64,000 nt of DNA from Lactifluus volemus (taxonomy: Eukaryota > Basidiomycota > Agaricomycetes > Russulales > Russulaceae). Within the stretch, counting starts at the first letter, position 1; each line of letters opens with the position of its first letter. The notes under the pieces were generated by a model. That model had not been told where the DNA came from. It ran no database searches and was given only the letters and a program-made list of their open reading frames with translations. The stretch covers positions 56,009-120,008 of the forward strand of contig WTXI01000103.1 in NCBI GenBank assembly GCA_022376515.1, in the 5' to 3' direction. The translations under genes and the position numbers were made by a program. Positions 23,646 to 61,580 of the stretch are shown here, piece after piece.

Positions 23646-23675
23646 TACGGTAAACCATTAGCCCGCCTGACCACA

Positions 23676-24030
23676 TAGTCAAACTACAATGTATCGAATG
23701 AATCGCTCAGCGAAGCCATACAATGTATCGACTCGATCGGGGCCAGCGCGCCCGCTAGTCATCCAGCGGACATACCATATTAGGAAGAGTGGCAGTGACC
23801 TTTTGGCTTACACATCACTGTTGCTGATGCCACTACCACTGCTGCCATTGCCGGTTGCACCAACACTGCCGATGCTTGAGAGTGATCCCACTATTCAAAC
23901 CTACCACATCAAAATTGGCTACTGCCCCCATTGCCGATGCTATCGCTGTTGCGCTGCCGCCCTTGCCACTGCCACCCCTTGCTGCTGTCACCGACGTTGC
24001 TGCCATCACCGACGTTACTGCTGTCGCCGA
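23676..24030 (+). repeat. Left terminal inverted repeat of the giant element
   Basis: Pairs with 61226-61580 in inverse orientation. Differences by eye include C/T and G/A near 23733-23740, T/C and A/G near 23795-23803 and a GC/CG swap near 23855. The repeat runs directly into the 19-bp tandem array, so arrays lie subterminally at both ends. Confidence 0.9.
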
Positions 24031-24770
24031 CGATGCTCACTGCTGTTGCGAATGTTGCTGCCGTCACCGACGCTCACTGCCGTCACCGACGCTCACTGCC
24101 GTCACCGACGCTCACTGCCGTCACCGACGCTCACTGCCGTCACCGACGCTCACTGCCGTCACCGACGCTCACTGCCGTCACCGACGCTCACTGCCGTCAC
24201 CGACGCTCACTGCCGTCACCGACGCTCACTGCCGTCACCGACGCTCACTGCCGTCACCGACGCTCACTGCCGTCACCGACGCTCACTGCCGTCACCGACG
24301 CTCACTGCCGTCACCGACGCTCACTGCCGTCACCGACGCTCCTTGCCGTTGCCAACACCAATGTTGCTGCCGTCGCCGACATTCACTGCCGTCACCGACA
24401 TTCACTGCCGTCGCCGACATTCACTGCCGTCGCCAACATTCACTGCCGTCGCCGATGCTCCTTGGCTGCCGTCGCCGACATTCACTGCCATCGCCGACGC
24501 TCCTTGCCGTCACCGACGCTCACTGCCGTCACCGATGCTCCTTGCCGTTGCCGACGCTCCTTGCCGTTGCCGTCACCAATGTTGCTGCCGTCGCTGACGC
24601 TCCTTGCCGTCACCAAGGTTGCTGCCGTCGCCGACATTCACTGCCGTCACCAATGTTGCCGCCGTCGCCGACATTCACTGCCGTCACCAATGTTCCTTGT
24701 CCTTGCCGTCACCAATGCTTCTTGCCGTCACCAATGTTGCTGCTGTTGCCGACGCTTTTTACCGGACGCC
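24030..24770 (+). repeat. 19-bp tandem array (CGTCACCGACGCTCACTGC)
   Basis: From about 24063 to 24340 the 19-mer is repeated essentially perfectly about 14 times, then degrades into variants (GACATTCACTGCCGTCGCC and others) to about 24770. Because 19 is not a multiple of three and the unit lacks stops, all three plus frames are open for 300 or more codons. These frames are repeat artefacts. The core TGCCGTCAC/TGCCGAC recurs in the other arrays of the element. Confidence 0.93.
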
Positions 24771-24849
24771 CCTTGCCATCACCGACGATGCCGCTGCCGC
24801 TTTCATTGCCGCTGTCCCAGACGATCACTGCCGCTGCCACCTTTGTTGC

Positions 24850-25090
24850 CACTGTCGACGTGACGGTACCTCTCTTGCCGACATTGTTGCCGATGGTACC
24901 ATTATTGCCGGTGTTACCGCTGCTCTGTTGCCACTGCCGCTGTTGCCGACGGTACCACTGATGCCGATGGTACCAGTTGCCGACATTACTGCTGCCTCTG
25001 TTGCCACTGCCGCCCTTGCTGCCGATGCCACGTCCATTACCGATGCTGCCCCCGTTGCCAATGGGCCAATGGCACATCAAAATTGGCACT
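24850..25090 (+). repeat. Degenerate TTGCCGACGGTACC array
   Basis: Repeats of 12-18 bp built from TTGCCGA and GGTACC (GATGGTACCATTATTGCCG, TTGCCGACGGTACCACTG). The same pair of words in the opposite orientation makes up the 28.67-29.05 kb array. Confidence 0.8.
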
Positions 25091-25173
25091 TCAGGGACAT
25101 TGGGACAATGCTACAATAGCCAGACCTCCATTGACTGTGTCTACAGACTCTACCATACTGTAGGCATTGTAAT

Positions 25174-25878
25174 TTAGGAATCATCTGTAGCTAGTTCACT
25201 TGCTCGTTCATCAATTTCACGTATGCGATTTCGGATGTCCTTATCCACCTTTGCAGCAATATTTTCACAAATATCCCCAATCTTTGTCCTCACATCATCT
25301 TCTGCTAGCAGCTTCTTTACCTCAGAGTGGTATAATCGATGGGCGGCATCTTTGTAGCTGATGCCATGCATTCTTGCAGAGCCTTGACTTCACCATGGTA
25401 CAGTAGAAGCTCGCGTTCTGTGTGCCCCTAATTGCAGCATAATGAATTGGTTAATTATTGACAATAAAATGTAAGAACAAAGACATACTGGTACCACTGG
25501 GGCCATCACACCAATTGGTGAGATCCAGCCATGTGGGAGATCATCAAGGCATAAAGGCTAGCAGGGCATATGGGCAATGGAGAGATTGATTACCATTAAG
25601 CATGTCCAAGGACAGCAATAACCACTTACCCCACCTGATGCCTGGTCAACACCCATCTCCTTAGCATTGTCAAGTGATTTTTGCATGTGCTCATATTCAT
25701 CAATCAAGAATTGTGGCACCAAGCATTGTTTTCCATCTTCTGTTGTTGCACGCACATAGTCATGAGGTTGAAAGATGTCCTCAATGGAAGAAGTCTTCTT
25801 GGTTAACTCTGTTGAGTTGCTTGGACATTCAGCACTGGCAGTATCCATGTGGAGAGGTAAAGTGATGATAGTGGACAC
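25174..25878 (-). pseudogene. Companion gene 1 of the giant element, unknown protein, probable frameshift
   Basis: Minus-strand exons inferred: 25878 or 25845 to about 25630 (HDYVRATTEDGKQCLVPQFL, DNAKEMGVDQASGG, then donor GTAAGT), a middle exon near 25560-25490 (LDDLPHGWISPIGVMAPVVP), and a last exon from about 25430 (GHTERELLLYHGEVKALQEC) to TAA at 25174. Between LQEC and HGISYKDAAHRLYHSE, near 25378, one base seems missing, so the last exon is read in two frames. The charged C-terminus (VDKDIRNRIREIDERASELA) is probably helical. About 190 aa if whole. No function recognised. It is head-to-head with companion gene 2, about 300 bp apart. Confidence 0.55.
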
Positions 25879-26179
25879 AGGTCACTTCTTCCATCGTGAT
25901 ATACATATATCAGAGTCCATGAGACTATATTAAATAAGCGATCTACCTTGATAGTAGATCTAGTGCGATAATAAGACACGTCAATCCCAATATGGTATAT
26001 GATGATATGAGCGTATACTCACTCGGTTCGAGACATGCAAAGTACTAAAAATGTGTCCATTAAATACATAGAAGGAGGATACATTGGCCTAAAATCTCAT
26101 ACAATAGATATACAATAAAGGCAATGGGAGAAAGGTAAGGAATGTATTAATGTGCGCTTAGACCGGCTAGATCCGGTCC

Positions 26180-28548
26180 GTGAAACCGTCGGCAACGTTC
26201 CCACGCAACGGCGCGACCGGCCCGTTTCACCATCGCTCAAGAAACGCTCAAGACATCGATAACAAGATTTCATCAAACCTCCATCATCACCCTGAACCCA
26301 CCTCTGGATCACTATCAATGTCTGTTGCAGATATCACAGCTAGCCTGCAAAAGTATGAAGAGATTATCCGGGAGGCGGTTGGTAATGGCAGCATCCTAAA
26401 TGTGATGTCAATGCATAGGAAACAGATAGTATGTGTTCATTTACTATTTCTAAGCTCCTTTTTAACCCTTCACATCTTAGTCACATCTATTCAGGCATTC
26501 CAAGACCAAGGATCCGCAGATCAAAGCAGTATTCGACAGATACAACCATATTACAAAGTTTATTCTTGAATGGAAAGTGCATCAGAACAACAACAACTTT
26601 GTAGAGGATCAACGCAGGGCAATCCTGATGTGGGATCAGAACACTCAAATCGGTAATGTCAATTTCTCACCGCTCACATCGAATGAACTCACTAACTGGC
26701 ATAAGGACAACCAGCATCAACAAGGGCACCCCCAGAAACCACTGAAGCAGCTCGAAGTGCACCTATGTCACCTGCTTTACCAGCAAGGTCATCACCACAT
26801 TTATCAGCAGTACCGACGGCACATCATTCGGTACTGCCGACACCTAGTCATCCGACACTGCCGACGCCGAGACATCCGACACTGCCGATGCCGAGTCCGT
26901 CGACACTGCCGACGCCGAGTCTTTCGACACTGCCGACGCCGAATCTTTCGACACTGCCGACGCCTAGTCTTTCGACACTGCCGACGCCTAGTCTTTCGAC
27001 ACTGCCGACGCCGAGTCAGTCGACACTGCCGATGCCGAGTCGTCGACACTGCCGACGCCGAGTCTTTCGACACTGCCGACGCCTAGTCTTTCGACACTGC
27101 CGACTCCAAGTCGTCCGACATTGCCGACGTTACCGACACCGAGTCGTCTGACGTCGCCGACACTACCGCCACAACATTCAACTCATTTGGAACTTTCAGC
27201 GACAGACCCGCGCCACAAGGGTAAGGCTAGGGTGCAGGTGGTGATGACTGTTGCTGAACTCCCTGCACCTGATGGTGACCACGAAGTAGACTCCAACGAC
27301 AATTACAACACAGACGAGGACATGAAAGACCCCACTGGTGAAGAATCGCGTCGCAAAATAGAAGGAACAGGAACATACCATATACCACCTTGTGACTTTT
27401 GCGAAAGACGTGGCCGACTTCGATATTCAGACGAGGACCCGAGGAAGCTTGAACTATGTGAGAAGGCGGCCAATGGGACGTCCTGTGTTAGGTGCATGGA
27501 GCGAAAGTCCAAATGCACTCTTGCCACCCCAAGAGTATCTAAAGCTCGCCAACAAAAAACGCCTGCCCCAAGAGCGTCAAAAAGAAAAGGGAAGCATGTA
27601 GCCCGGAGAAAAGGCAATGACGAGGACGACACTGGCAATGATGAGAACGTGGAGAATGAGGGAGATCCTGCTCCACGAGTGCGGCGAACATCATTGGAAT
27701 ACCAAGCGGCATATGCAAAAGCAGCTTCCGAGGCTGAACTCCATAATAGATTTGGAGAGTCGCATGAATCCGGACATGGTGGTGAGTTGCAATTAGATCC
27801 TTCTGTCTCAAAATATTGAGTGAGATTTGAAGTAAACCCAATTTTCGCCCTCAGAGTGGATGATATCAATCAACAACTTGGTGAGGAAGCCGTGGCCAGA
27901 ATGAAAACGCTCGAGGCTGAGCAGCAACGACTGTCGCTCATGGAGGAGAAGCTTAACACCCTAACTGGGAAACTCGAGAGCATCCTCGAACAAACGTCTT
28001 TGACTGCTAACCAAAACAGCACAACACAACGTTTGGAACGGATGGAGGTAGTCTTGAATTCTCTGAGTGAGAAGGTGGACAAGTTATGTACGTATATCAG
28101 CTCGCACCCTGACGCTGTCCAAGCTACCTCTGGGAGCCCACATGCTGCAGTTCCAGCACCATCTTCTCCACTCTCACAGCCACTATCACCTTTCATGCCT
28201 TCCACAACACTGGAGACATTGTCAGCACGGCCACCAAGCTCCGAGTCACCAAGTTCAGAAAGCCCAGGAGAAGCTGCCCCCAGCCAGGTCACTCGGAATC
28301 CTGCTTACATTGTGACACCCCCTACGCCACAAAGGTCCAGGAGAGTTGGCGAGGCCCCCACTATGTCGTTGGCACCTGTCGTACCATCCCGTAACAGTTC
28401 GACAACGCGAGCACAGTCACAAGGTCATGGTGTGTCGTCATCTGATGGTGCTGGAACTTCTGCAAGTACAGGTAGCCAGGAGACAGGGAAGGGTCAAAAG
28501 CGGAAGGCACAGGGCCGTGATACTGCAGCGCCAAAAAAGCGAAAGTGA
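26180..28548 (+). CDS. Companion gene 2: cysteine-cluster, coiled-coil, nuclear-type protein (4 exons)
   Basis: Exons by splice fit: 26180 (or ATG 26318)-26428, 26481-26652, 26736-27781, 27857-28548; introns 52, 83 and 75 bp. Exon 1-2 encodes YEEIIREAVGNGSI and VFDRYNHITKFILEW, exon 3 a (TLPTPSLS)n tract made by a 24-bp array. A cysteine cluster PPCDFCERRGR...CEKAANGTSCVRCMERKSKC follows at about 27388-27515, then basic stretches. Exon 4 is a coiled coil (MKTLEAEQQRLSLMEEKL), a Ser/Pro-rich region and a basic tail (GQKRKAQ, APKKRK). The Cys spacing resembles fungal DNA-binding clusters but is not a standard Zn2Cys6. One array unit is 23 nt, shifting the frame near 27043; either the gene is broken there or the model is incomplete. 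Probably a nuclear DNA-binding accessory protein; inference. Confidence 0.55.
26840..27135 (+). repeat. 24-bp array inside companion gene 2
   Basis: About 12 copies of ACACTGCCGACGCCGAGTCT plus TTCG-type ends, carrying the TGCCGAC core. One unit near 27030-27055 is 23 nt (CTGCCGATGCCGAGTCG then TCGACA), which changes the open frame. The array is coding in the host gene. Confidence 0.85.
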
Positions 28549-28664
28549 TAGAACGATTTGTAGTGGATAAATGAGACAATGTTACCCAGTAATAAAACCC
28601 ATCTTAGTCACTGTGAGCCTGCATGCACAGGCAGCAGCGGCAGCGGCAACATTGCCGAAGGCAG

Positions 28665-29775: not shown

Positions 29776-29789
29776 TAGACGCGAGGTGA

Positions 29790-31297
29790 CATTCCTCCTT
29801 GGTTTCTTACCACCATCATCGTTGCTTTTCCCACGATGCCTTACCCCCCCGTCCTCTGCAAAGAAGACTACCTACAAGCTCACACAGACGCCGAGTCTGG
29901 CGTTCCAGGTGCCCGGGAAGCCCTGGAGACTGCTCGTGCGGTCCTGAAGAATGTGCCCTACGGGGACGAAGCTGCAGGGGAGGCCGCCCTCAAAGCGGCC
30001 CTCCTAGCGGCCACGTCAGCACCTTCCCCTCCCTCCCTGCCCCCCCCTCCCCCGCCCCGGCTACCGCAACCCCCTCGGAAGCGACAACCCGGTTGGCTCG
30101 GTTGTTGGCGGTGGCCAGTGTTCCCCCTCCCTCTCTCTCAGAGGCCCCTCCCCTGTCCCCTACCGGTCAGCAGGACGAGTCTGGCCCATCTAATTCCCAC
30201 GAATTTTACCCTCCTCGGGTTTTTACTGGGACCCCCATTTCTCAGCCCACTTCAACGCCCGCCATGGATACTTTGGACGGCGGGGCAGAGCCCCTTCCCT
30301 CGACTCGCTACTTTCCCCCGGGCAAGCGGCTTGCCAAGAAGAAGGCACTTACTGTGGATGCAGAGCTTTCAATTTTCGACATCTACAACATCTTCCGTCG
30401 TCGCTGGTTCCTTTCCGTGGACCACCTCAAGGCGAACGCCCTCTCGGCTCAAAAGGCCGAGGATGGAAAAATTTCCTGGGTCGAGTTTACTCCCCAGTTC
30501 CACGCTCACCTGGTCAAGTGCGCTGTTGCGCTTGTGCCTCGCCCCATCAAAAAGGTGAAACAGGTGATGTTTGGGTTTATTTTAGAGCTTCTCAACGGCG
30601 AGGGCCCAACGGCCTTCTTCGATCTCACCAAAGGGCAACGGCATCAAACCCGGGCCCAGAAGGAGAAGAAGCGACTTGCACGGAAAAGGAATCGCGCATC
30701 GAGGCGAGAACGCCGGAAGACCGCGGAAGAAGCAGTCGAAGGCCGACCACAACGGCAATGCCAGCAGTGCGGACGCAAGTTCGCCTCGCGCAAAGCCGCG
30801 AAGAGACACCGATGCCCCTTGTCCAAAGAGGCGAGCGGGATGGGTGGGGATGGGAAGGGCAAAGGTAAAGCTGACGCCCCCCCAAAACCGAACAAGCCGA
30901 CCCCCAACACCACTACCGCACCCTCTGCCTCCCTCACTCCCTCAGCCACTACGGCTCTGCAAGCTGCGAAGACGTCGAAGCCAAAAGCGCCCCCGAAAAA
31001 GAAGAAGCCGAAGGCTGCCCCAAAAGCGCCTGAGGCCCCCTCCAGTGCTATAAGAGCGGCTTTTAGTCGACCCCCTGTACACACGATGGCCGGAGAGCTT
31101 GCTTCTGACCAGCCCTACGAGAGTTCCGCGGACAGACGTTCGGAGCGGTTGAACACTGCGAAGAAACGCCAGACGCGCCGCGGGCTGATGGACACTTTAC
31201 GTGACAAGTGAATAGTCTTAGGTAGTAGTTCTGTTAGGACTTTGACACGGTATAGCGGGCGCTCCCCGGAAATCCGTCTAGTTAATAGGAAATGCTT

Positions 31298-31334: not shown

Positions 31335-31336
<2 letters not shown>

Positions 31337-31348
31337 GACGCGAGGTGA

Positions 31349-31555: not shown

Positions 31556-32035
31556 TGTCACGGTCAGGTCACCGTGGCGTGGTTTCGGTTCTGGGTCGTG
31601 CTGACTAAGCGGAACGACGAAGCGGCCGCAAGGACTAAGGCGCGAAGGTCTAGTCAAGGAGTAGAAGACTTGGCTGTGGCGTGATCCACACAAGTCTTCA
31701 GAGGCTTCACTCAAAGAGGAAGCAGTCTTTCAGAGGGGAAGGGAAAGGGAAGGCTGAACAGTCACTTGTATTGCTCGCTGTATCGACTACCTGAGTTCTA
31801 CAGGAGAATGAGCTTAAGGCCCGTCTCAGAGGTACAAGGGATATATATACTGGAACAGCGGATCGTACTAGAATGTTCAGGGATGTCCCTGTGAATGTGT
31901 AGAAGCATATGGAATCGACCGGAACATTACGGAAGCTAACAGAAGGTGGGAGAATCGTCCGACGTATCGATGAGTAAGAGAAGGAAATTGACGAGTCGGG
32001 GTCACCTGTGACCGTCACGTCACGTTACTGTGACA
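31556..32035 (-). repeat. 3' LTR of gypsy element 1
   Basis: TGTCAC/GTGACA ends. A TATATATA box lies near 31850 (read on minus). The minus-strand polypurine-like AATAAGGGGGTAA lies just upstream, at 32036-32048. Confidence 0.93.
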
Positions 32036-32062
32036 TTACCCCCTTATTAGCGTCTGAAGCTT

Positions 32063-33667
32063 CTAGGTGAAGCGGACACCGAGTCGGGCAGGACGACGAG
32101 TCCTCGTGGGGCAGCGGGTTTTCTCGAGGTTCGGGTGATCGACGGGAACTTTACACGTGAGGCCATGATGGCAATTTCGGTGGGGAATATTGCACTTGTC
32201 TTCGACGTGCCCACATTGACCACAAAATTGGCACTTACGCAAAAAGTGGCAAAATCCCGTGTCGTGGTCCTCGCGTCTGCACCATTCGCAAAACGCTTCG
32301 CGACGTGTGGGTTCCTCTCTCCAGGGATCCTCAAGGATATCCATCCCTTCAAGTCGAACTCTATGGGAGAGACGTGCACCACTACCAAAACCACCACCTA
32401 TGTCGGAGTTGATCATGTGGGTAATGCGAAAGGCGGCATTCGCATTTGCTAAAAGTTCATAGGTGATCCAGGCTTCCTCCTGGTAAGCTAGGAATTTGCG
32501 GCGAAGGTGAGACATGTGGCGTGCCGTCCTTCTCATTTTGCTGATGAATAGGCGGTGACGAATCACCTTAGCCGTCAGGGTTGGGTCTTCCAGTTCTTCC
32601 AGAGCTGCATCGACCAATGGTGAGTGTTTTTCGTCTTCCGCGAACAAGAATCGTTGTTTGCGAGTATACGGGCGTTGGGGGAATCGGGCTCGTGTTGCCC
32701 GTAATGGGCGACAACTCGTAGGGCAGTTCTTTCCCTGAGTTCCCAGCACCGACGGTCCGTCGTCGTCCGTCATATCAATGAGGACGAATGCGGCGGTGGA
32801 CGTTCCATTGCCGTCGGGGACGTTGGGCAATTTCCAATCAGGAAGGATCTGGTTGACGACCCACCCTACTCCTGGCTTGACTCCTGGCTGGGGTCCGTCC
32901 GGCATGGGGGTTCGCAGCATCTCGCGTTGTTCTCTTTCAGCTTCTTCGAGAGCCATCTCGAAGTCGTGGGTAATGAGCGCGTCAACCGCTTCGTCGGAGG
33001 ATGAGATGGGGTCGTTGGACATCGGGGACGTAGGGGAGAGGTCTGGGGTGTTCCCGGGTGGTGTCGTTACGTGGTATGACGGGGTTGATGGGGGTGGTGG
33101 AAAGTCTGAGTGGTACGACGGTGCCGGACTTGCTGGCATTGGTGCGATGGTTCTACCCAGGTGTCGTAGTACTGATTCGGTGATTTCTGTTCGGGGGCGG
33201 AGCATGAGTGGAGGAGGTGAGGGGACCCTTGTTGACCCGACGCTATATCGTGGGTCGGAATGGCCAAATCGCTGTAGTGCTTCCTGAAGAGGGAGGTTCC
33301 ACATATTTGCCCCCTGTAGGATGGACATCGCGTGTTCTACTGCCCATCGGAAGTGGGTAGCTACGGTATGGTCAGGTAATGGGTAGGGGAGATGACCGGT
33401 AATTCTCATCGCCGATCGAGTGGGGAGCCTGTGGAATTCCCGAGTAGCCCCGATGATCGCGGCCTAGTAAGCCATCATGATGTACCTATTGCCATTCGGT
33501 TCGTCTGTAGCATTGAAAGCTGCTACTGGCATCCTCTGGCGATGGATGGGTTCAAGGGTTCCTCCTTCAGTGACTTCGAGGTCGACGCTGAAGTCGGGAG
33601 GTGGTGAGAGAGGTAGGGGAGCATCGGTAGTGACTGGAGAGGTAGCAGGGGAAGAGGTAGAGGACAT
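32063..33667 (-). pseudogene. Third ORF of gypsy element 1: CCHC/CxxC-cluster protein, one stop
   Basis: 534 codons from ATG 33667 to TGA at 32063, with in-frame TAG at 33464-33466 after MMAY. Lies downstream of pol, where env would lie in an errantivirus, but has no signal peptide or membrane segment. The N-terminal and central parts are Pro/Ser-rich and acidic. The C-terminus has a cysteine/histidine cluster: CEWCRREDHDTGFCHFLRKC followed by QFCGQCGHVEDKC and NCHHGLTC, like tandem zinc knuckles. This suggests RNA or nucleoprotein binding, a second Gag-like role, rather than an envelope. Inference only. Confidence 0.75.
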
Positions 33668-33743
33668 GTTTCTATACGTTGTAAGTCTGACTAGGTGGAT
33701 GGAGTAGTGGGATGGGGAATGTTCGGTGGAGTGAGAGTTGTTT
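33668..33743. other. Pol-ORF3 junction
   Basis: 76 bp between the pol stop (33744-33746) and the ORF3 start codon. ORF3 lies one frame away from pol (coordinate 1 versus 2 modulo 3). No splice acceptor was assigned. How ORF3 is expressed is unknown. Confidence 0.4.
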
Positions 33744-33980
33744 TTATACTTCTGGTCGTCCAGCCGTAGCGGAGTTTCGATAGTATTCTTTGAGGAGTTC
33801 TGGGGCGTCTAGGTCCTTGTGTTTGACCCAGGTGTTGTCGGAGTTCGGATATCCTTTCCAATGGACAAGGTATTGGAGTCCTCCTCCTCTGCCCTTTCGC
33901 TTCTTCACATCTAGTATCGCATCGATTTCGTATTCTTCTTCACTCTTATCGATGATCGGTGGTGGTCGTGCAAACGGCGT

Positions 33981-38400: not shown

Positions 38401-38596
38401 TCTTTTAGCCCTAGTTTGTCAACTAGTCGTGGGTGTATGAAGCATTCTGTGGCTCCCGTATCTAAGAGTGCGTGGTTTTCAGCTCATTTCCTCGATGTAT
38501 GGATCAAGAATCCAGTCTTGATATATTTATTCCTAGCTGTATACAAAGAGTCAGTACTACAGGCCCGAATGAGAGCTGTTGCATTCAGGCCGCTTG

Positions 38597-38603
38597 AAAA
38601 CCC
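38597..38603 (-). promoter_or_regulatory. -1 frameshift slippery heptamer GGGTTTT
   Basis: Reads G GGT TTT in the gag frame, 10 nt before the gag stop, the classical X XXY YYZ form. A -1 slip leads directly into the open pol frame (SSGLNATALIRACSTDS). A downstream RNA structure was not assessed. Confidence 0.75.
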
Positions 38604-42851: not shown

Positions 42852-42856
42852 CAAGA

Positions 42857-43752: not shown

Positions 43753-43769
43753 GTCGCGTTGCCTCAGGC

Positions 43770-44740: not shown

Positions 44741-44744
44741 GATA

Positions 44745-48250: not shown

Positions 48251-49004
48251 ATGCAAGTTTCTATGGCCACAGAATCAAGAAAACGAAAACGAGGAAAGTA
48301 TCAGAATCGGTTGGTAGAAGATAATGATGAAGCAATTGACATTGTCAGTTTCAAAGAGGTGAATACCAACACACCTGGTGGACCAGTTACAAAAAGGGTT
48401 CAAATACCCCTAAGACCCAATGTCACACTCAGGAAAAGCACAGATTGCCCTAGAGAATCCTCATCTAATCTACAGTTCGAAGCTTTTGAGGATGCTCAAA
48501 TGGATATAGACACACCTGATGATGAACAACAAGCAAATGAAACCCCGGTGTGTAAAGTCTTTTATAGAAAAATATTAAAATTTAATTTTTTAATAAATAT
48601 TGTAGCAGAATGTGTATTTGCAAGAGTTCACCCGTCATGCTAGTGGTTTACTAGCTGCTCTACTTTCTCGAGAAGCATTACCAAACCATGGAAGATGCAT
48701 GCAATGTCCAGAGCATAGGTATGCAAGATGGAGATGCAAGGACTGCACCACAAGCCCCCTTCTCTGTCGCCTTTGCATGCGTCACTCCCATCTTGACAGC
48801 CCACTCCACTGTATTGAATACTGGACAGGGTCATTTTTCCGCCCAGCACACCTCTGGGAAGTTGGTGTATACATTTTAGTTCAACACCACCTGGGAGTAA
48901 TGGTCTGTAAGCACCTGACATTTCAAAAAGAAGCTTTGGAGAAGATGCAACGTGTCAGGGATAAAGAAGAGGAGGCAAAATTACAAGCAGAAGGTACTGG
49001 TGGC

Positions 49005-49050
49005 ACAACGGCAGCGGCAACGGCAACATCGGCAACGGCAACGGCAACGC

Positions 49051-49147
<97 letters not shown>

Positions 49148-49150
49148 TGG
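49005..49150 (+). repeat. (GGCAAC)n hexamer tract in the transposase coding exon
   Basis: About 16 near-perfect GGCAAC units (49050-49143), preceded and followed by looser copies to about 49245. Encodes alternating Gly-Asn. Carries the CGGCAAC core of the non-coding arrays. Confidence 0.92.
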
Positions 49151-52131: not shown

Positions 52132-52276
52132 TGGAGGGGCGTGTGCTGCCACTCTCGATGAGGTTTCGCGTCAAGAACCCTTGTTCGTCATTACATCAGC
52201 GGTCTAGTTTACGTGCTCAGCTACTCGGCGCCTGTTCTCAGGGCCTCGCCCCGCCTGTTCCTTATCCCCTATTCCA
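52132..52276 (-). repeat. 3' LTR of gypsy element 2
   Basis: 145 bp. The pol frame terminates inside it (stop at 52204-52206), so coding and LTR overlap by about 70 bp. Confidence 0.95.
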
Positions 52277-55200
52277 TGCTCCCCCCTCGCGAATAGCGGT
52301 GTCCGCACCGCTTTTGCCTCTTCGCAGTTTGGGTTATCCTTCAGCCACTCTTCCTGCTCTGCTTCCAACTTCCCATTTGGCTTCGGCGTGAACTCCCTCA
52401 ATCTTCTCGCGCTGAACTCTCCTTCAACTTCGGTGCCCTCTAGCCTCTCGAGCGTGTACGCGTTCCGGATGCGGGTTCGGATTCGGTATGGTTGGGACCA
52501 TTTTGGAACCAGTTTTCGCTCCGTCTTGAACGTGTAATCTAGATCACTGCGATAGACCTGAACCAGTTGTCCTTCCTGAAATATTACCTCACCTGAGCGT
52601 TTTGTCATTCGCCTGTCGAATGCATTTTTCCGGTTGATTGCGTGCTTAACTATCGCTTCGTAACCATCAACGCGTTGTTGTGCCGCATATGCCATGTGCA
52701 CCGCTGCCTCTGCCTCCGTTGGTGCCTCCTCGCCTGCCGACTCTGTTGTCGTTCTCGGGGTGTCGATCGCCATCCCGAGTAGCAGCTCCTTAGGGGTGAA
52801 TTTGAGCGCTGGTAAGATGCGTCTGTTGAGGGCGGCGACCGCCGTGTCGAGGTGATCGGGCCATGCTCGGGGAAGGTTTCCCCAGCTCCCGTCATCGTCT
52901 TGCTCACCGATCTCAGGTGCGCACATGCGTTTCAGGATGTGTAGGAGGATCTTGTTCGTGCCCTCCACTAGTCCATTGACCCATGGTGAATACGCCGGCG
53001 TTACGTGGTGTTTGCATGCGTTAGCCTCGCAAAGCTCCCGCACTGCCCCATTGTTGAAATGCGAACCGCCGTCCGTCATGAACGCTTCCGGCGCTACGAA
53101 GTTCTTGCTGATGGTACTGAGTGCGTCGACGGTGGTTTTGGCTGTGCCTGCCGATTTGTACTTGAAGGCCCACACGTGCTGCGAGAAGGTGTCTAGGTAC
53201 AGGGCAATTGTGTGGTACCCGCCTTTCCCTGCCGGCATCGATAGGTAGTCCCCGACTAGCAGTTCGAAGGGGTGCCGCCTAGTGATTGGCTGGAGTAGAG
53301 CATTCAGTCGGGTTGGCCCGAAGCTCTTGCACTGTGTACAGCCGCGTATTGCGCGGATTATCGCGAGGTCAAGGTCGGGGCTCGTGATTCGGTCCATCAG
53401 CGTGATCTTGATGCTATCCCGTCCCATGTGGCCTCCTTGTTGATGCTGCTCGCTCGCCATTGCTTCTGCCTCTGTTCTGGATATGCACTCGGTTCTGGTT
53501 CGTGCTCGTGTGCTTGTGCCGCCGTGGAGTTTCCACAGTTTCCCCTCCTCGAGGACGTACTGGGATGCTCTATGCCGGGCTTGTTTTCGGTCTCGTACCG
53601 TTCTTGCGCTGTCCTGTCCTCTGATAGCATCTATTACTTCAATGAACAGATGCTCACCCTTGAGCCGCTCCTGGAGCGCTTCCACTTGCTCCTCTGTTGC
53701 TCCTTCGAGAGTCAGCAGAATGTCGTTGACCAGTCCCACTTGGTCATCTCTGTCGGGGCTCACTGTCCAGGTGTGTCCATCCTCGCCTGTTACTGGTTGT
53801 CCCTCCCATTGTCTGCTCAGCCCATCCGCTACTACGTTGATCTTCCCGGGAACGTGGCGTACGTCTACGATCTGGTGGCCCAGTATGCCATCTCGCCATC
53901 GCGCGTGGACCACGCTTGGCTTCTCGCTGAGGAGTGTGTCGCGTAGGGCTCGGCAGTCTGTTTCGATCTCTACTGGAAAGCCCCACACGATGTCCGAAAA
54001 TTTGTCTAAAGCAAACTTAAGGGCAGCGAATTCCAGCAAGAATGGCTTGTACTTAGCTTCTGCCGGGGATGTGCGCTTGGACGCGAAGGCGATCGGGTGT
54101 AACTTCTGCGTCACTTTCCCGTCTGGTCTCGTATGGGGGGACCTCTGAGCTAGCACGCCGGCAAACCCATCCATGCACCCATCTGTTGTGACTACGAATG
54201 GTGTTCCATCCCACCTCGGGCCTCGTAGAATTGGCTCCGACATGATTGCGATCTTGAGGTCTAGGAACGCCTTTGTCTGTCGTTCCTTCCACTTGGGTTC
54301 AAGGCTATGTGCCGCCATGACTCTGCGGTATGCCGTTTTTGTACATGGTTACGGCAACGCTACCTCTGCTAGCAGGTCTCGCAGTGGACCCTCGATTCGC
54401 GCGTACCCTCGTATCAGGTCTCGGAAGTGTCCTGTGAGGCCCAGGAAGGACACCAGGTTCAGTGCGTTGCTGGGCTTCTTCCAGTCCACTATTGCCGTCA
54501 ACTTTGTGAGATCTGGCAGTACTCCTTTCGGGCCTATTCGTGCTCCCGCAAACGTGACTTCCGACATGAAGAGCTTCGACTTAGCAGCTGATAGGGAGAG
54601 CTTCCGCTCGCGGACTCGATCCATGATCTTGACGAGCTTGCCCTTCATTCCCTCAAAGGTGTCCGCTGCCATGCCTCCGTCATCCACAAATATCTCCAGT
54701 GTCTCGTCTGCTATCAGGTCGTGCAGGTGGTTGGCGGCCATCGCGGCAAATGCGGTTGGCGCCCCTGTCAGTCCGAACGGCATCCTTGTGTACCAGAAGT
54801 GTCCCAGGCCTTCTATGTAGAAGGCTGTATACGGCTGTGACTCCTGATCGATCTCGACAGCATAGAATCCGGACGCGAAGTCGATCGTGCTGACGTACCG
54901 GTGGCCGCTCAGCCTATGCTGCTTTGCCCGTATGTCCCCCTGTGGCATTGGGGCTACTTTTGCGTGTTTGTTAACCTCTCGGAAGTCCTGGCATATTCGC
55001 CATTTCTGTTCTTCGTGTGGCAGGTTCGCTTCTGCATTTTCGGGCTCGTGTCTTTGCGGTACTGGGAACTGCGGTGCGAGTCCCGCGGCCTCGCATTCTG
55101 CGTTTACCCTTTGCTGGAGTTCTTCGAGCGTCAGCCCTACTCCTTCGTGCTGCTTCTGTCCCAGTGTGGTCGCCGAAACACATTTGATTCTGGCTGGGTC

Positions 55201-56316
55201 TGCTTGCTCGATAATTCCCGCCTCGAGCATCTCTCGGACTTTCTGGTGCAGGTACCTCCGCTGGGGTGGTGTAAACGTTCACTGTCTCGCCTTCATTGGT
55301 AGCTGGGTGTCTGGTGGTATTGCCAAGTGAAGCTTGGCGTCCTTTGCTGGCACCACCTCGCGTACTGTGAGGGCAAAGCAGTCAGCATATGTCCTCACCA
55401 ATTCACGCACCTCTTCTTGTTGGCTGTCGCTTAGGTCATTTCCGATCTTGATCGCTCTTAAGACCGCTTCTACTCTTCTGGGGTGGAATGGGTTTGTCTG
55501 TCGCTCGGGGATCGGTGTCGCTGCTCTGTGGCTTTCCTGTCGTTCTGGTGTTCTCTTCTGCTGCTCTTCTTGTCTGTTGGTCTCTTCCACGTTGTTGACT
55601 ACTGCGGGTGTTCTTTTCCGACCTTGCTTCCAGTCCGCAGCTGGCGGCATGCCTTGAAGGGCTAGCCTTGCGTAGTACTGGTTCCTTATTTGGTTCGTCA
55701 GTACTGCCCTTCTATTTGTATCACTCACCTGGATTTCATCACGCTCATAGTCGTGCTGTGCTCGGAACTATTTGAGCAACGGTTTCCCTAGTAGGAAGGA
55801 CCACCCTCCCGCACTGTCGAAGACTTCGAACGTGCCCGTCGTCTGGACGCCTTCCAGCTCGATTGTGCCTGTCCACCTCGCCTCTGACGCTGTTTGGGTT
55901 CCATTTGCCATGCGCAGGGCACGTTTTGATGGCTGCCACGACCCCAGCCTGTGCCTGACGTGCTCGAAAACGGTTTTGCTCATCGCGCAGATCATCGCTC
56001 TATCGTCGATCGTCGCTCGCACTCGGACCACTTCTCCTTTTGGTCCTAGTAGTCGGACCTCGTGGACGAATGGCTGTGCTGTTTCCGAGTCTCCCCCGAC
56101 CGCGTACAAGTCGACCATTTCATATTCTCGCTCTGTACTAGCCACTTCTGTGCTCGCCTGTCGTAACTGTCCGTCCTCGTCTCTCCTGTCGTCTGTGTGT
56201 GGTTCTCTCCTTGGCGTAGCACTTGTATTCGGGGTCGTCCGCTCGCCTTCTATGCGGTCGACCCTTCTCCATTTCCCGACTCTGTGTGCTGTGCTCCTCC
56301 GTCCCACTCTTGCCAC
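52204..56316 (-). pseudogene. gypsy element 2 Pol (PR-RT-RNH-INT) with three in-frame stops
   Basis: A single frame from the gag overlap to 52204 broken by TAG 55768-55770, TGA 55279-55281 and TAA 54349-54351. Protease-like segment VRATIDDRAMICAMSKTVF (about 56020-55960), where the usual DDGA of this lineage reads DDRA (GGA to AGA would explain it). RT: CQDFREVNKHAKVAPMP, YVSTIDFASGFYAVEIDQES, MPFGLTGAPTAF, FVDD (about 54690). RNase H: PFVVTTDGCMDGFAGVL (about 54200). Integrase: GGHMGRD, CTQCKSFG, GDYLSMPAGKGGYH, FMTDGGSHFNNG, WVNGLVEGTNK. No chromodomain, unlike element 1. Confidence 0.93.
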
Positions 56317-57833
56317 ACCTCCGTCTCCGTGTCCACCAGGTGCACTTGGATTCCCGTTAGCCTGTCGGCTTGGCCTAGTACGGCTGTGCAGATGGCACGC
56401 CAGCAGGACTCCTCTGGGGTTAGCCTGTTAGCGCTGCCACTTGGTACCGGGCATTGTATCCCGATGTGACCGTGTGTGCCGCATCTATAGCACTCTCCCG
56501 TGCACACTGCTGCCGTTCCGGGCCTCAGCGGAACTGGGGTTCCTCGCGTGATTGAGTCGCCGCTATTCCTGCCTGCGGTCCACTGGGCTAGCTGGCGCCT
56601 GTAGGTGGCGTGGCCTGCGTCTGTGTCAGTCTGGTGTAGGAACGTGGTGAGTCGCTGCCTCATGTCTGCCTTTTCAGCTTCCGTCGCTGGGGCTCGCTGC
56701 TGGGGACTTCTGGGTGCGCTGGTCGTGTATGGGCCTGGGCGCGACGGGGAAGGAGCTGCCGTCGTGTTGCCTCCGGCTGCTCCGGTCGTTGCTATCTGCG
56801 GAAGGGTTCCATATTGCTGTGGTCTGGCGTTTCCCACCTGCCTCGTCGTTTTCCGGTCCATGCTAAGGTCCTTGACCATAGACGTTAGGTCCCGGATGGT
56901 CTTTTCTGCGCTGGCTCGCTCTAACAGTTGGTCCATGTCGACCGCTTTCACGTTGTTAGTGAATGTGGTCCAATCAGTAAAGTTTCGCTGTATCCCTTTT
57001 CTGACTGACCCAGGCAACTGGTTCATCACCTGCTGGATGTACTCCGTCCTGCCTTCGAGTTCGCACGCCTTGGCCTTCTCGAGTATCTCCTCCGCCCACG
57101 CGATATGTGCATGTTGCACCCTGCCCATGTAGGGGACCATAGTTCCGACGTCCTGTGGCTTGAGCTTGTAGTTCACCAGGTCATCCGTCATCTGCATGAC
57201 TGTTTTGACTGCCAGGGGCTGAGTGTCCCACCGTGCTGTGAACGCCGGTTGTAGTCGGTCCCAGTCCTGGCGTACGACTGCCGGGAGGGCTTTGTGCCAC
57301 TCTTCCGCTGGGGAATCAACCTCTAGGCGGAGGGGAAGGAAGTCCGCCTTCACGCGGGAAGTTGTGATGCCGCTCAGCATCATCTGATACTCTAGGTCTC
57401 GCAGGAACTTTCTTGGGTTCTGGTTACGCAGTCCCCCGAACGGTTCTACAGTTGCTGTGGCCATCAGTCTTGTTGGAACTGTGGTTGCTGGCTGTGCGAC
57501 TTGGGCCTGTACAGGTAGTGTTGGCCACTGGATTCTCTGTGTGGGGTCAGCTATGGTTGCTTGGTTCAAGCCTAACGGGCTCGGTCCTAGAGGTGTGAGC
57601 GGGGCCGTATGAGGTGCTGGGGATGAGGATAGGGTGGAGGGTGGACTAAAGTCTGATGTGTCGTCGGTTGGTGTGTCCGCACGTAAGAGCTCGTCTACGT
57701 CTGGGCTTGAGCTTCTGCTCGCTGATGCTGGGATGATACTGATGTTTTCGTCTGGGGGGGGTGTGATGAGCGTGCTGGTTTTGGGTTTTACTTTTACTGC
57801 TCGTGGCGGGGGAACTCGAGTTGGGGGTGACAT
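56250..57833 (-). CDS. gypsy element 2 Gag with zinc knuckle
   Basis: 527 open codons from ATG 57833. Helical capsid-like centre (PFGGLRNQNPRKFLRDLEYQ, SPAEEWHKALPAVVRQDWDR, NFTDWTTFTNNVKAVDM) and knuckle CYRCGTHGHIGIQC (CX2CX4HX4C) near 56500-56460. It overlaps the pol frame at 56316-56250, consistent with -1 frameshifting. Gag is intact although pol carries three stops. Confidence 0.93.
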   Translation of the reverse strand: MSPPTRVPPPRAVKVKPKTSTLITPPPDENISIIPASASRSSSPDVDELLRADTPTDDTSDFSPPSTLSSSPAPHTAPLTPLGPSPLGLNQATIADPTQRIQWPTLPVQAQVAQPATTVPTRLMATATVEPFGGLRNQNPRKFLRDLEYQMMLSGITTSRVKADFLPLRLEVDSPAEEWHKALPAVVRQDWDRLQPAFTARWDTQPLAVKTVMQMTDDLVNYKLKPQDVGTMVPYMGRVQHAHIAWAEEILEKAKACELEGRTEYIQQVMNQLPGSVRKGIQRNFTDWTTFTNNVKAVDMDQLLERASAEKTIRDLTSMVKDLSMDRKTTRQVGNARPQQYGTLPQIATTGAAGGNTTAAPSPSRPGPYTTSAPRSPQQRAPATEAEKADMRQRLTTFLHQTDTDAGHATYRRQLAQWTAGRNSGDSITRGTPVPLRPGTAAVCTGECYRCGTHGHIGIQCPVPSGSANRLTPEESCWRAICTAVLGQADRLTGIQVHLVDTETEVWQEWDGGAQHTESGNGEGSTA

Positions 57834-57918
57834 TCCGCTTGCTTTATGCGTGCTGTTCTTGTGCTTTTTTATGTCTCCGCTCGGCCTCGAGGGTTGAGTC
57901 TCACTGTTGTCACCACGT

Positions 57919-58063
57919 TGGAGGGGCGTGTGCTGCCACTCTCGATGAGGTTTCGCGTCAAGAACCCTTGTTCGTCATTACATCAGCGGTCTAGTTTACG
58001 TGCTCAGCTACTCGGCGCCTGTTCTCAGGGCCTCGCCCCGCCTGTTCCTTATCCCCTATTCCA
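57919..58063 (-). repeat. 5' LTR of gypsy element 2
   Basis: Identical by eye to 52132-52276. Confidence 0.95.
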
Positions 58064-58316
58064 ACGTGCACGTGCACAGAAGCAGCGCTGGGAAGAAGAG
58101 GTCACTCTTGTTGGATATGAGATGCAGTGGACAGTGCGGTTTTTTATCCATAAGCAGGAGGATTGGGAGCGACGAAGAACAATGGCAAATGACAATCAAG
58201 CTACTGGACCAGCAGCATATGCTGCTCGCAAAGCAGAAATGTGGGGCTGGATGGCTCAAGATGCCAATTATTCATTCATAAAAGCTAACAGTGTATATAT
58301 CACACCCTTTTTGTAA

Positions 58317-58641
58317 AGCCTATAATCAGGATATCAAATTTTACCTGCTGTCACCAACATTCACTGCCATTGTCGACATTCTGTTGCCCCTGCTGCCCAC
58401 TGCATGCTGCTGCCACTCTTTTTGCTGTCACCAACGTTGCCGCTGCCACCTCTGTTGTGGTGAGCGGCAAGACAGGCAATAAATTTAAGCCCCAAGCCCC
58501 TAGCATGTCATAGTAATCAAGTGAAGCCCTTCAATGAATGATATAATGCATGATACATTTCTTAACAGATAGTATACGTCAGCAAATCCTTGAGTGAGAC
58601 ATTCATATCTAATCTAACAAATCTCCAACCAACGTCCAGAG
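58317..58641. other. Convergent 3' region of transposase and companion gene 4
   Basis: 58345-58460 has loose CTGTCACCAACATTCACTGCC-type units of the 19-bp array family. Otherwise AT-rich with no gene. Confidence 0.5.
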
Positions 58642-60653
58642 CTATGCACTATCAACATATTCATCTGGGCCAGCAAACCTAGAAAAGTCAGCCCCAGTCC
58701 ATCCACCCTGTCCAGGTCTCCCACTAGTAGTTGTGGTAGACTTGTCTACACTCATACGATCTGAAGTAGATGATGATGATGATGACAGTGCACGACATGC
58801 TCGAATAAGAAGAGAATCACTGTCATCAGAGTCGTCACTATCCATAAGGGCAAGGTAGGCATCAATGGCAGAGGGACTATTGTGCTGAGGATGACTTGAC
58901 GTGGAACTTGCAGTTGAAGAATGGCCAGAGAGAAGAGCAGCCAGAGCAGCTTCAGTGGTGAAGAGATCAGGTGAATGTGAACCATTGCTGCTTGAGGGCC
59001 TCGTGATATCGTAATCGGCACCCGCAGGGGAGGCAATATCAGCAGGCGCAGTATCATCGTCGGCAGGCGTGGTATCGTCGGCAGGCGTAGGATCGTCGGC
59101 AGGCGTGGTATTGTCGGCAGGCATGACATCGTCGGCAGGCATGACATCGTCGGCAGGCATAACATTGTCGGCAGGCGTGGCATCGTCGGCAGGCGTGGCA
59201 TCGTCGGCAGGCGTGGCATCGTCGGCAGGCGCGGTATTGTCGGCAGGTACGGTATTGTCGGCAGGTGTGGCTTCAGCACGAGTTGACATTTGCGATTGTA
59301 AGATGTCACGACCATTGCCATGTGGTAAGGCCCCGCGTGGCACAACAGCACGAGGGCGGTGGAGAGGGAATGCACGAAAATGATGAGGAATATCGTTTGG
59401 TGCAAGCTCAGGTGTATCGCTCGGTCTAGTGCCTGGAGTGATTTTTGGTGATGGTGGCGGAATGAAGGCCGACGATGGGCCCACAGAATATTCCCCAGGA
59501 AAGTTCCCCTCTCTCAATGATTCATCATAGCCAGAGTGTGGAGGTTTATAGTCTCTGTCTCCTGCGTGAAATAGTCCACGAATGTCATTGTCATTAAGGT
59601 CTACTCCCCATGTCCATTTCAGACATGGCTCGTTCTCCAGGCGGACTCTATCGGCACGATAATGATACTGCATGATCTCAGCCAGCTTTGTAAGAGTCAG
59701 TTTTCTTGGTATTTTGGGTGGTGGGCCTGGTGGCTGACTTTCGACGCTCTCTTGGGGAGTTGCCACTATCCGCTCGTGTAGATGCCACTTCAAGTTAGCC
59801 CTTGATGGTACTGGTTTTTCTGCAGTACTGGGGGTGGGTGCTGAAGTGGAAGGGGTGGGTACTGGAGTGGAAGTGGAAGTGGAAATGGAAGCAGTGTCAT
59901 GTGTTTCCTTCAGGACGGCGGCTTCAAATAGTCTATTGAATGCTGAAGCACGCCTCTTGGTTGACGCAGTTTGGTTAGCAACTTTTTGATCCAGTCTCTT
60001 TAACTCTCTGTAAAGATGTTGCACATCTTCTCTAGTACCCACGGCCAAATTACGGTACAAGTTGCAGCACTTGCAAGTGGGTAGTTGCCCCGGTCGCTCC
60101 AATATAGATGCTTGAGGTGCCATGTCCATTGCCACTTCCGCTGACCTTGCTGATGCCATCTCTGCTTCCCGCTGCTTATGATGGACCAGCAGACATTTGT
60201 CAAGAGTTTCATGGCTGAGTAGTTCAGGGCTGGGTTTGATAACAGAAGCAGCCCACCAGTCTAGCATGTAATTTTCTACTAGACCAGTTGGATAACGGGG
60301 ATGATTGTGGGCATCCAACATGAGAAGAGTTTTCAGTGGACAAGAAAAGGGAAGGGGGTTGTCGAGGTTTGATTTTGTGTAGGATGAAGTGAGGAAGTTG
60401 GTTATATAAGGGACAGTAACGTACTGCCCCAACGCTGCCGCAATTCCAATATGTATCAAGGATATTTCCTTTATTATGTAATTAGCAAATGAAATAAGAA
60501 AATTGGGGTGATTCGTACTAGTTCCTTGAAAATACATTTTTGGATTATTTTCTTTTGAGAGATCTCAGTATGGTTATCCAGAGCTGTTAGTGCAGCCCGG
60601 AATCTTGAATCACAATAGTCAATTATGTCTTGAGGGTGCATAGAGGATGACAT
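58642..60653 (-). CDS. Companion gene 4: unknown 653-aa protein with PADD repeats (2 exons)
   Basis: Exons 60653-60519 and 60468-58642, intron 60469-60518 (GTACGA...AAAG), phase 0. N-terminus MHPQDIIDYCDSRFRAALTA, then GQYVTVPYITNFLTSSYTKS, DAHNHPRYPTGLVENYMLDW, a CKCC pair with helical HLYRELKRLDQKVANQTAST. A Ser/Thr/Pro-rich linker, a folded-looking block (LTLTKLAEIMQYHYRADRVR, WTWGVDLNDNDIRGLFHAGD), an acidic (ATPADD)n tract from an 18-bp array, and an acidic/Ser-rich C-terminus (DSDDSDDSDSLL) follow. No membrane segment or known domain recognised. Convergent with the transposase gene. It is the only companion gene with no visible defect. Confidence 0.68.
59035..59275 (-). repeat. 18-bp GTCGGCAGGCGTGGCATC array coding for (ATPADD)n
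   Basis: About 13 units within companion gene 4, each starting with the TCGGCA core. On the coding strand each unit gives six residues such as ATPADD or VMPADD. Confidence 0.92.
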
Positions 60654-60834
60654 TGTGGGGCAGAAAGGTTGTACTGATGGTGGATTGATATCAAGATGCG
60701 ATCGTGAGTATCAGATGAGCAGTCTTGAATGTTGTCACAGTTCCCATTTGGGACTGCGTGAGAATTTCAGCCTTTTCCCTCTTTTGGGTATATAAACATA
60801 TATATATATTATATAATCTCTAAAATAAACATCG
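60654..60834. promoter_or_regulatory. Upstream region of companion gene 4
   Basis: About 180 bp between the gene start and the right-end arrays. An AT-rich TATATATATATTATATAA stretch at about 60798-60815 could supply a promoter on the minus strand. Position-based inference. Confidence 0.4.
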
Positions 60835-61330
60835 GCAACGGCAGCAACAAGAGCGGCAGCGGCAATGCCGGCATGAACGTCAGCGCCGGCAGTGATCGGT
60901 GATAGTAAGGAGTGTCGGCAAGGAGCATCGGTGAACGTCGGCGACGGCAGCAACATTCGTGACGGCAGTGAGCGTCGGCAATGAGCATCGGCGTCGGCAA
61001 TAAGCATTGGCAACGGCAGTGAGCGTCGGTGACGGCAGTGAATGTCGGCAACGGCAGCAACACTTGTGATGGCAGTGAGCGTCGGCGACGGCAGCAACAT
61101 TTGTGATGGCAGTGAGCATCGGCAATGAGCATCGGCGACGGCAGTGAGCATCGGTGACGGCAATGAGCATCGGCGACGGCAGTGAGCGTCGGTGACAGCA
61201 GTGAATGTCGGCAACGGCAGCAACATTCGCGACGGCAGTAACGTCGGTGATGGCAGCAACGTCGGTGACGGCAGCAAGGGGTGGCAGTGGCAAGGGCGGC
61301 AGCGCAACAGCGATAGCATCGGCAATGGGG
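60835..61330 (-). repeat. Right subterminal array, 19-bp-type units in mixed register
   Basis: On the minus strand the units read like the left array (TGCCGTCACCGACGCTCAC, TGCCGTCGCCGATGCTCAC) but are shorter in total and more degenerate. The left and right arrays are inverted relative to each other, continuing the terminal symmetry. Confidence 0.88.
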
Positions 61331-61580
61331 GCAGTAGCCAATTTTGATGTGGTAGGTTTGAATAGTGGGATCACTCTCAAGCATCGGCAGTGTTGGTCGA
61401 ACCGGCAATGGCAGCAGTGGTAGTGGCATCAGCAACAGTGATGTGTAAGCCAAAAGGCCACTGCCGCTCTTCCTAATATGGTATGTCCGCTGGATGACTA
61501 GCGGGCGCGCTGGCCCTGATCAAGTCGATACATTGTATGGCTTCGCTGAGCGATTCATTCGATACATTGTAGTTTGACTA
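61226..61580 (-). repeat. Right terminal inverted repeat of the giant element
   Basis: Inverse of 23676-24030, ending ATTGTAGTTTGACTA at 61580. Confidence 0.9.

What the first reader, a model, noticed from the sequence alone, without database searches (positions are those of the whole stretch)
23676..61580. A 38-kb KDZ element with 350-bp inverted repeats and four companion genes
The two ends match in inverse orientation for about 350 bp and split a duplicated spacer whose unbroken paralogue sits at 9490-9600. This defines a single mobile unit containing a CxC2-KDZ transposase and four other multi-exon genes arranged as divergent pairs (25878/26180 and 47737/48251) plus one convergent gene. 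Fungal KDZ elements are known, and some carry TET/JBP genes. No TET/JBP is seen here, and these four proteins may be an undescribed accessory set.
Basis: partly seen in the sequence, partly recalled or inferred. Interest (0 to 1): 0.92.

Follow-up and report, generated by a model that had tools for sequence, protein, structure and literature searches.

The report
Mushroom transposon carrying four partner genes
A milkcap mushroom carries a large cut-and-paste jumping gene that travels with the same four unexplained partner genes, one of which sits near similar jumping genes in other mushrooms too, so these partners are good candidates for unknown parts of its transposition or anti-silencing machinery.

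Summary
Window 23672-61584 is one DNA transposon with ~367-bp inverted repeats (96%) and a 7-bp target duplication, inserted in a spacer whose unbroken paralogue lies at 9480-10042. The host is Lactifluus volemus (inferred). The gene set (CxC2-KDZ transposase plus G1, G2, G3, G5) recurs in three complete 18-19-kb copies of a diverged family; eight of nine end pairs have perfect 7-bp duplications. Genome searches with the four partners hit only these elements plus a few relics. dN/dS estimates are below 1 for all five genes. Three of four G3 homologues from other mushrooms lie on contigs of the same length as a KDZ-type protein, so the pairing spans two orders. Corrections: the 38 kb includes nested retroelements, one inside the transposase gene, and this copy is dead (four of five genes broken). 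Class: KDZ, Kyakuja-like (7-bp duplication, CA..TG ends), but with long TIRs and no TET/JBP gene found. G3's C-terminal domain resembles the GTF2I repeat of TFII-I (suggestive only). Most likely a cut-and-paste element whose partners aid end recognition or counter silencing.

The parts
23665..23671 (.). left copy of the 7-bp target-site duplication GCCTGAC
61585..61591 (.). right copy of the 7-bp target-site duplication GCCTGAC
23672..24037 (+). left terminal inverted repeat, outermost tetramer CACA; holds two copies of ACAATGTATCGA
61219..61584 (-). right terminal inverted repeat, outermost tetramer CAGG; holds two copies of ACAATGTATCGA
24058..24756 (.). subterminal array of a 19-bp repeat, left
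60931..61274 (.). subterminal array of the 19-bp repeat, right, inverted
25177..25894 (-). G1, small protein (168 aa in copy C10); frameshifted in the window copy
26318..28548 (+). G2, zinc-cluster-like motif (827 aa in C10); frame broken and a stop in the window copy
29790..31208 (+). ORF of a high-copy repeat (93 matches in the genome), nested insertion, not a companion gene
31556..42851 (-). nested Ty3/gypsy LTR retrotransposon (LTRs 99.6% over 481 nt, 5-bp TSD CAAGA)
45522..47659 (-). G3, companion found on KDZ contigs in other mushrooms (555 aa in C10); two premature stops in the window copy
48251..52131 (+). G4, CxC2-KDZ transposase, 5' part (1380 aa in C10); frameshifted in the KDZ core of the window copy
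52132..58063 (-). nested gypsy-type LTR retrotransposon inside the last exon of the transposase gene (LTRs 100% over 149 nt)
58064..58313 (+). G4, CxC2-KDZ transposase, 3' end beyond the nested insert
58645..60653 (-). G5, companion (712 aa in C10; open frame of 653 aa here)
9480..10042 (.). unbroken paralogue of the spacer that the element split

Best explanation
The interval is a copy of a KDZ-superfamily, Kyakuja-like cut-and-paste DNA transposon in Lactifluus volemus. Complete copies of the sister family B are 18-19 kb. The element encodes a CxC2-KDZ transposase and four non-host partner proteins (G1, G2, G3, G5), between TIRs that share the core TAGTCAAACTACAATGTATCGA but differ in the outermost tetramer (CACA at one end, CAGG at the other). 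Shown: paired ends, 7-bp target duplications, recurrence of the whole five-gene set, confinement of the partners to these elements and a few relics, dN/dS below 1, and G3 on KDZ contigs in other mushrooms. Inferred: the transposase recognises the paired ACAATGTATCGA motifs and cuts; the partners work with it, G3 and G2 as DNA-binding factors on the ends or subterminal repeats (end pairing, or protection from silencing in place of a TET/JBP enzyme), G1 and G5 as assembly factors. The window copy is dead (four genes broken, two LTR elements and a third repeat nested in it) but keeps its ends, so it could move only with proteins from other copies.
For: TIR and TSD (perfect 7-bp TSD in 8 of 9 end pairs, 0 of 72 cross pairs). 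Three further complete copies with all five genes; C10 gives five open spliced reading frames. Partner searches hit only these elements plus relics at C607 and C190. A versus B dN/dS 0.37 (G4), 0.54-0.66 (G2), 0.56-0.61 (G1), 0.62 (G3), 0.75-0.77 (G5); share of bootstraps at or above 1: 0-0.030. Three of 4 G3 homologues share a contig length with a KDZ-type protein; NP233_g13069/g13070 are consecutive. Kyakuja: 7-bp TSD and CA..TG ends (PMC12730594). Gene-less copies with the same ends and TSDs suggest that ends are used in trans.
Against: No experiment, expression or excision data; gene models lack transcripts. Each partner's role is inference; none of the four has a credible Pfam match. G5's dN/dS is close to 1 (one of its three comparisons has an upper bound of 1.02). 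The Kyakuja families of the cited paper are said to have no TIRs, whereas these have long ones. The transposase was not placed in a tree with labelled Kyakuja/Zisupton/Dileera references. Only G3 was seen with KDZ in other species: G2 had no homologue outside the host (a chimeric query with a candidate cap), G1 was not searched there, and G5's homologues carry no context. The fourth G3 homologue has no listed KDZ partner.
Confidence: 0.75

Rival explanations
1. Passive passengers: one ancestral KDZ element captured four genes (or other transposons' genes) by accident, and copies A and B inherited them without function.
For: Partners diverge much faster than the transposase (50-74% aa identity A-B against 88-90%); G5 dN/dS is 0.75-0.77; four of five genes of the window copy are broken, and C325 has stops in KDZ and G5.
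Against: The blocks of 100 bp or more that align between A and B lie over the five genes (with some introns and a short stretch between G1 and G2) and the outer TIR; the rest does not align. dN/dS is below 1 for all five genes; all three complete B copies keep the set; G3 sits on KDZ contigs in three other genera. G5 changed place relative to the other genes between A and B and was still kept.
Confidence: 0.15
2. Anti-silencing set (overlaps the best explanation): the partners are not needed for the cutting reaction but counter host silencing, in the role of TET/JBP in Kyakuja or of the regulator of plant Vandal elements.
For: No Tet_JBP match in the partners or genome; some Kyakuja families carry a TET/JBP gene, and Vandal elements encode an anti-silencing regulator (PMC12730594); fast divergence fits an arms race; the zinc-cluster-like motif of G2 and the GTF2I-like domain of G3 would suit sequence-specific binding to the subterminal arrays.
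Against: No enzymatic or chromatin domain was recognised in any partner; the arrays may be transposase sites; one search is a weak negative.
Confidence: 0.35
3. Chance pile-up of repeats: TIR-like ends and unrelated genes that happen to lie together.
For: The region is rich in nested retroelements and simple repeats.
Against: Perfect 7-bp duplications, an unbroken paralogue of the target, and the same five genes in three other complete copies.
Confidence: 0.01

Closest known systems
Kyakuja (KDZ) DNA transposons of Agaricomycetes, incl. TET+ Kyakuja-1_LB/-2_LB (Kojima 2025, PMC12730594)
   Same: KDZ transposase, mushroom host, 7-bp TSDs, 5'-CA..TG-3' termini
   Different: long TIRs (367 nt at 96% in A; in B the ends align over about 530-680 bp at 79-80%) where that paper states none for its two Kyakuja families; no TET/JBP found; four other companion genes
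KDZ1-3 of Cryptococcus neoformans (PMC12810828, passages read)
   Same: KDZ transposase with a cysteine cluster, TIRs of 139-241 bp, large size
   Different: 9-11 kb, CxC1 rather than CxC2, TSDs of 8 bp (KDZ1) or 4-8 bp (KDZ2, KDZ3); no companion set in the passages read
CxC2-KDZ transposons of Pleurotus ostreatus (PMC7641404, passages read)
   Same: KDZ transposase preceded by a CxC2 cluster, 36 copies reported in one genome
   Different: the passages read describe only the transposase ORFs
GTF2I repeat of TFII-I / GTF2IRD1 (PDB 2d99, 2d9b, 2eje and others)
   Same: G3 C-terminal domain: top fold matches and second-best sequence match in PDB

Membership tests
KDZ superfamily DNA transposon | KDZ transposase domain (PF18758) | tested here: met
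   window E 6.3e-26, over the curated cut-off; C10, C600, C325, C349, C627 over the cut-off
KDZ superfamily DNA transposon | N-terminal cysteine cluster of the CxC type | tested here: met
   CxC2 PF18803 E 7.6e-17
KDZ superfamily DNA transposon | element bounded by defined termini with target-site duplication | tested here: met
   8 of 9 end pairs with perfect 7-bp TSD, 0 of 72 cross pairs
Kyakuja lineage | 7-bp TSD (Zisupton and Dileera: 8 bp) | tested here: met
   8 of 9 pairs with 7 bp, 0 of 9 with 8 bp; PMC12730594
Kyakuja lineage | 5'-CA..TG-3' termini | tested here: met
   all nine end pairs begin CA on both sides: eight CACA/CAGG, C624 CATA/CAGG
Kyakuja lineage | no TIRs, as stated for the two characterised families | tested here: not met
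   TIRs in both families; PMC8290104 (passages) speaks of TIR motifs for KDZ and Plavaka elements, so lack of TIRs may not define the lineage
Kyakuja lineage | transposase groups with Kyakuja in phylogeny | not tested
   no labelled reference sequences were at hand; the tree holds only relatives found here
TET+ KDZ element | encodes a TET/JBP dioxygenase | tested here: inconclusive
   no Tet_JBP match in partners or genome, but the controls also rang nowhere and the PE-type is very diverged
GTF2I repeat (TFII-I) | GTF2I fold of about 90 residues | tested here: inconclusive
   suggestive; no Pfam match

The most novel reading that the evidence does not exclude
The KDZ element carries a dedicated four-protein transposition or anti-silencing module, and its most conserved partner, G3, contains a GTF2I-type DNA-binding domain. 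That fold is otherwise known (recalled) from the animal TFII-I family, one member of which, GTF2IRD2, is fused to a hAT transposase (PMC10641963, passages). If the domains are homologous, the TFII-I repeat would have a relative, and perhaps its source, among transposon partner proteins.
Probability: 0.15. Interest if true: 0.85.

Novelty: new variant of a known kind. Interest (0 to 1): 0.62.

Why it matters
KDZ elements are abundant in mushrooms (Marasmius oreades, PMC8290104, passages; 36 in Pleurotus, PMC7641404, passages; 37 loci here), yet the papers I could read name no helper gene other than TET/JBP. Here a fixed four-gene set travels with one KDZ lineage, and one helper (G3) occurs with KDZ genes in Russulales and Agaricales. 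This gives named candidates for a multi-protein transposition or anti-silencing system, copies to test (C10; C600 shows no stop in its aligned parts), defined ends, a 7-bp target rule and natural gene-less derivatives to use as substrates. The consistent CACA/CAGG asymmetry also suggests that the machinery tells its two ends apart.

Tried and rejected
Chance repeats: rejected by TSD and recurrence. Companion genes as host genes: no such place found in own-genome searches. The 29790-31208 ORF as a fifth companion: rejected, 93 matches across the genome and no aligned counterpart in family B. Cargo in the non-autonomous copies: their DNA is largely repeats shared among themselves, with no aligned stretch of 100 bp or more to the window interior beyond the TIR; the ORF list was cut and I did not scan those ORFs against Pfam, so cargo is not excluded. 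PDB sequence search with the whole G3 and G5 families: no match. NCBIfam: nothing credible. Pfam on the G3 C-terminal domain: no GTF2I match. AlphaFold of a G5 homologue: mean pLDDT 42.9, unusable, so no fold search was made with it. Papers holding Lactifluus volemus, transposable elements and genome together: none. Helper genes of KDZ beyond TET/JBP: the listings showed none; Iyer et al. 2014 is not held, so I cannot say it is unprinted.

Whether unrelated KDZ lineages carry other companions is untested; the partner searches show only that these four do not recur there recognisably.

Limits of the dN/dS test: one A-B comparison type per gene, Nei-Gojobori, window or contig-end copies that are partly pseudogenes, stop codons dropped, low-complexity masking by tblastn. 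No complete intact copy of family A was seen, so its true size is unknown.
Full report
OBSERVATION. The two ends match in inverse orientation for 367 nt at 96%, with inverted arrays of a 19-bp unit just inside. The element is 23672-61584, 37,913 bp, flanked by GCCTGAC on both sides.

THE HOST. The best KDZ match is BGW80DRAFT_1183207 of Lactifluus volemus on a contig of 116,662 bp, the length of contig C10; a G2 fragment of the same species is on one of 165,385 bp, the length of C600. So the genome is L. volemus (Russulaceae, Russulales).

THE FAMILY. A genome search with the 367-nt TIR gave 31 matches and with its outer 107 nt 30 matches. Family A is close to the window copy (about 99% over its transposase part); seven partial copies run into contig ends: C67, C82, C587 on the G1 side and C349, C303, C373, C627 on the G5 side. 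Family B has three complete copies, C10 (18,604 bp), C600 (18,327) and C325 (19,278), 75-95% identical to the window in the aligned blocks. Five further end pairs are short, 1.1-5.3 kb: C24, C14, C346, C423, C624; they share no aligned stretch of 100 bp or more with the window interior beyond the TIR. Single ends without a partner in the fetched stretch are at C568, C606, the starts of C14 (with a G5 fragment) and C346, and C325:1719.

TERMINI. Of nine end pairs, eight have perfect 7-bp duplications, against 0 of 72 cross pairs; C624 matches at 6 of 7; none of the nine has 8 bp. In eight of nine pairs one end is CACATAGTC and the other CAGGTAGTC (C624: CATA and CAGG). The TIRs carry ACAATGTATCGA twice, 34-35 bp apart, in 14 of the 16 ends counted; the C346 left and C423 right ends keep one exact copy; C624 was not counted. 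In the window the exact motif occurs only in the two TIRs. Read from the CACA end, the genes run G1-G2-G3-KDZ-G5 in the window and G5-KDZ-G3-G2-G1 in C10, C600 and C325. G5 points the same way relative to the ends in all four, so the block of the other four genes is inverted and G5 lies on the other side. Recombination between the long TIRs plus an internal inversion would explain this (inference).

GENES. C10 gives five open spliced frames by GT-AG introns that I placed by eye: G1 168 aa, G2 827, G3 555, KDZ 1380, G5 712. The models lack transcript support. In C600 no stop falls in the aligned parts; C325 has three in KDZ and one in G5. G1, G2, G3 and G5 have no credible Pfam match. In C10, G2 carries C-x2-C-x6-C-x8-C-x2-C-x6-C, the spacing of fungal zinc clusters (recalled; Pfam did not report one), followed by a heptad-like stretch (by eye); the A copy has a longer first spacer. 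Eight environmental proteins match G5; most share CxxCxxYR (P0127 lacks the first C), RRASGFNxLFEAA and SLKWTWG.

STATE OF THE WINDOW COPY. An LTR element lies at 31556-42851 (LTRs 99.6% over 481 nt, TSD CAAGA), with gypsy gag and pol; a second at 52132-58063 sits in the last exon of the transposase (LTRs 100% over 149 nt). Copies C349, C303, C627, C10, C600 and C325 are uninterrupted there. The 29790-31208 ORF belongs to a repeat with 93 matches. The window transposase has a one-base deletion in the KDZ core relative to C349, C627 and C10; G1 has one relative to C67 and C587. G3 has two premature stops, and G2 an apparently broken frame with a stop. G5 is open. The ends and TSD are intact.

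CONFINEMENT. Own-genome searches with each partner matched only these elements, apart from relics: G1 13 matches, two of them at C607:367-368 kb; G2 20, one at C190; G3 21, one at C607:337.6 kb; G5 25, none outside. Queries from other sources agree: Amanita G3 16 of 16 and an environmental G5 12 of 12 in these elements. The KDZ domain itself has 71 matches, 37 loci by my count, six of them this family. So, within the sensitivity of these searches, the partner set belongs to one KDZ lineage, not to KDZ elements at large in this genome.

CONSTRAINT. A-B dN/dS: G4 0.37; G2 0.54-0.66; G1 0.56-0.61; G3 0.62; G5 0.75-0.77. Of nine comparisons, eight have a 95% bootstrap upper bound below 1; G5 against C349 reaches 1.02. 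The blocks of 100 bp or more that align between A and B lie over the five genes, some introns and a short stretch between G1 and G2 included, and over the outer TIR.

OTHER SPECIES. A search of 5.8 billion proteins with G3 gave four proteins: two of Leucocoprinus birnbaumii, one each of Amanita rubescens and Flammula alnicola, 27-41% identical. The transposase search gave 239, of which 120 were listed, out of a capped candidate set. Three of the four G3 homologues lie on a contig of the same length as a listed KDZ-type protein: 213,975 bp (P0002, P0006) and 215,760 bp (P0004, P0014), both partners with CxC2 and KDZ domains; and 3,666 bp (P0001 = NP233_g13069, P0111 = NP233_g13070), where P0111 has only the CxC2 domain by Pfam, being cut short on the small contig. 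The fourth (P0003, 16,124 bp) has no listed partner. In a tree of 32 of the transposases, which I chose, these three are scattered over both main halves, with some weak nodes, so the pairing is either old or repeatedly formed.

PLACEMENT. Kojima 2025 (PMC12730594; abstract, introduction, methods and results up to part of section 3.4, plus passages) gives Kyakuja 7-bp TSDs and CA..TG ends, Zisupton and Dileera 8 bp. The element fits Kyakuja on these two, differs by its long TIRs and by lacking a recognisable TET/JBP. Cryptococcus KDZ1-3 (PMC12810828, passages) have TIRs of 139-241 bp and TSDs of 8 bp or 4-8 bp. Pleurotus KDZ genes are preceded by CxC2 (PMC7641404, passages). Hence: new variant of a known kind.

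MECHANISM. Shown: bounded element, TSDs, recurrence, dN/dS below 1, G3 on KDZ contigs elsewhere, gene-less copies with the same ends. Inferred: cut-and-paste by the KDZ protein; recognition of the double ACAATGTATCGA motif; DNA-binding roles for G2 and G3; helper or anti-silencing role of the set. I put 0.75 on an element whose partners serve transposition in a broad sense, and about 0.35 on anti-silencing as the main role within that.

Noticed in passing
window 498-3266: Copia-type pol with RVT_2, integrase and GAG-pre-integrase domains.
   Followed up: partly
window 6828-18049: Four tandem paralogous ORFs of 481-495 aa (F-box-like start by eye, no Pfam match), about 3.0-3.5 kb apart, with spacers of the kind that the element hit.
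   Followed up: partly
C14:59890-63125 and C24:348273-352746 (L041, L040): Elements with this family's ends whose arms stay 97-99.5% alike over at least 1.17 kb of each end, foldback-like.
   Followed up: partly
C607:337589, C607:366994-368442, C190:313885: Lone relics of G3, G1 and G2 (42-71% identical), perhaps a third, decayed family; no KDZ or TIR match was listed near them. L057 was fetched but not analysed.
   Followed up: partly
genome contigs C67, C82, C587, C349, C303, C373, C627: All seven partial A copies run into the 3' end of their contig, in + orientation; cause not known, perhaps an assembly convention at collapsed repeats.
   Followed up: no
C10 element introns of G1 and G3; window 46802-46989: Introns hold satellite-like arrays that differ between families A and B.
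   Followed up: no
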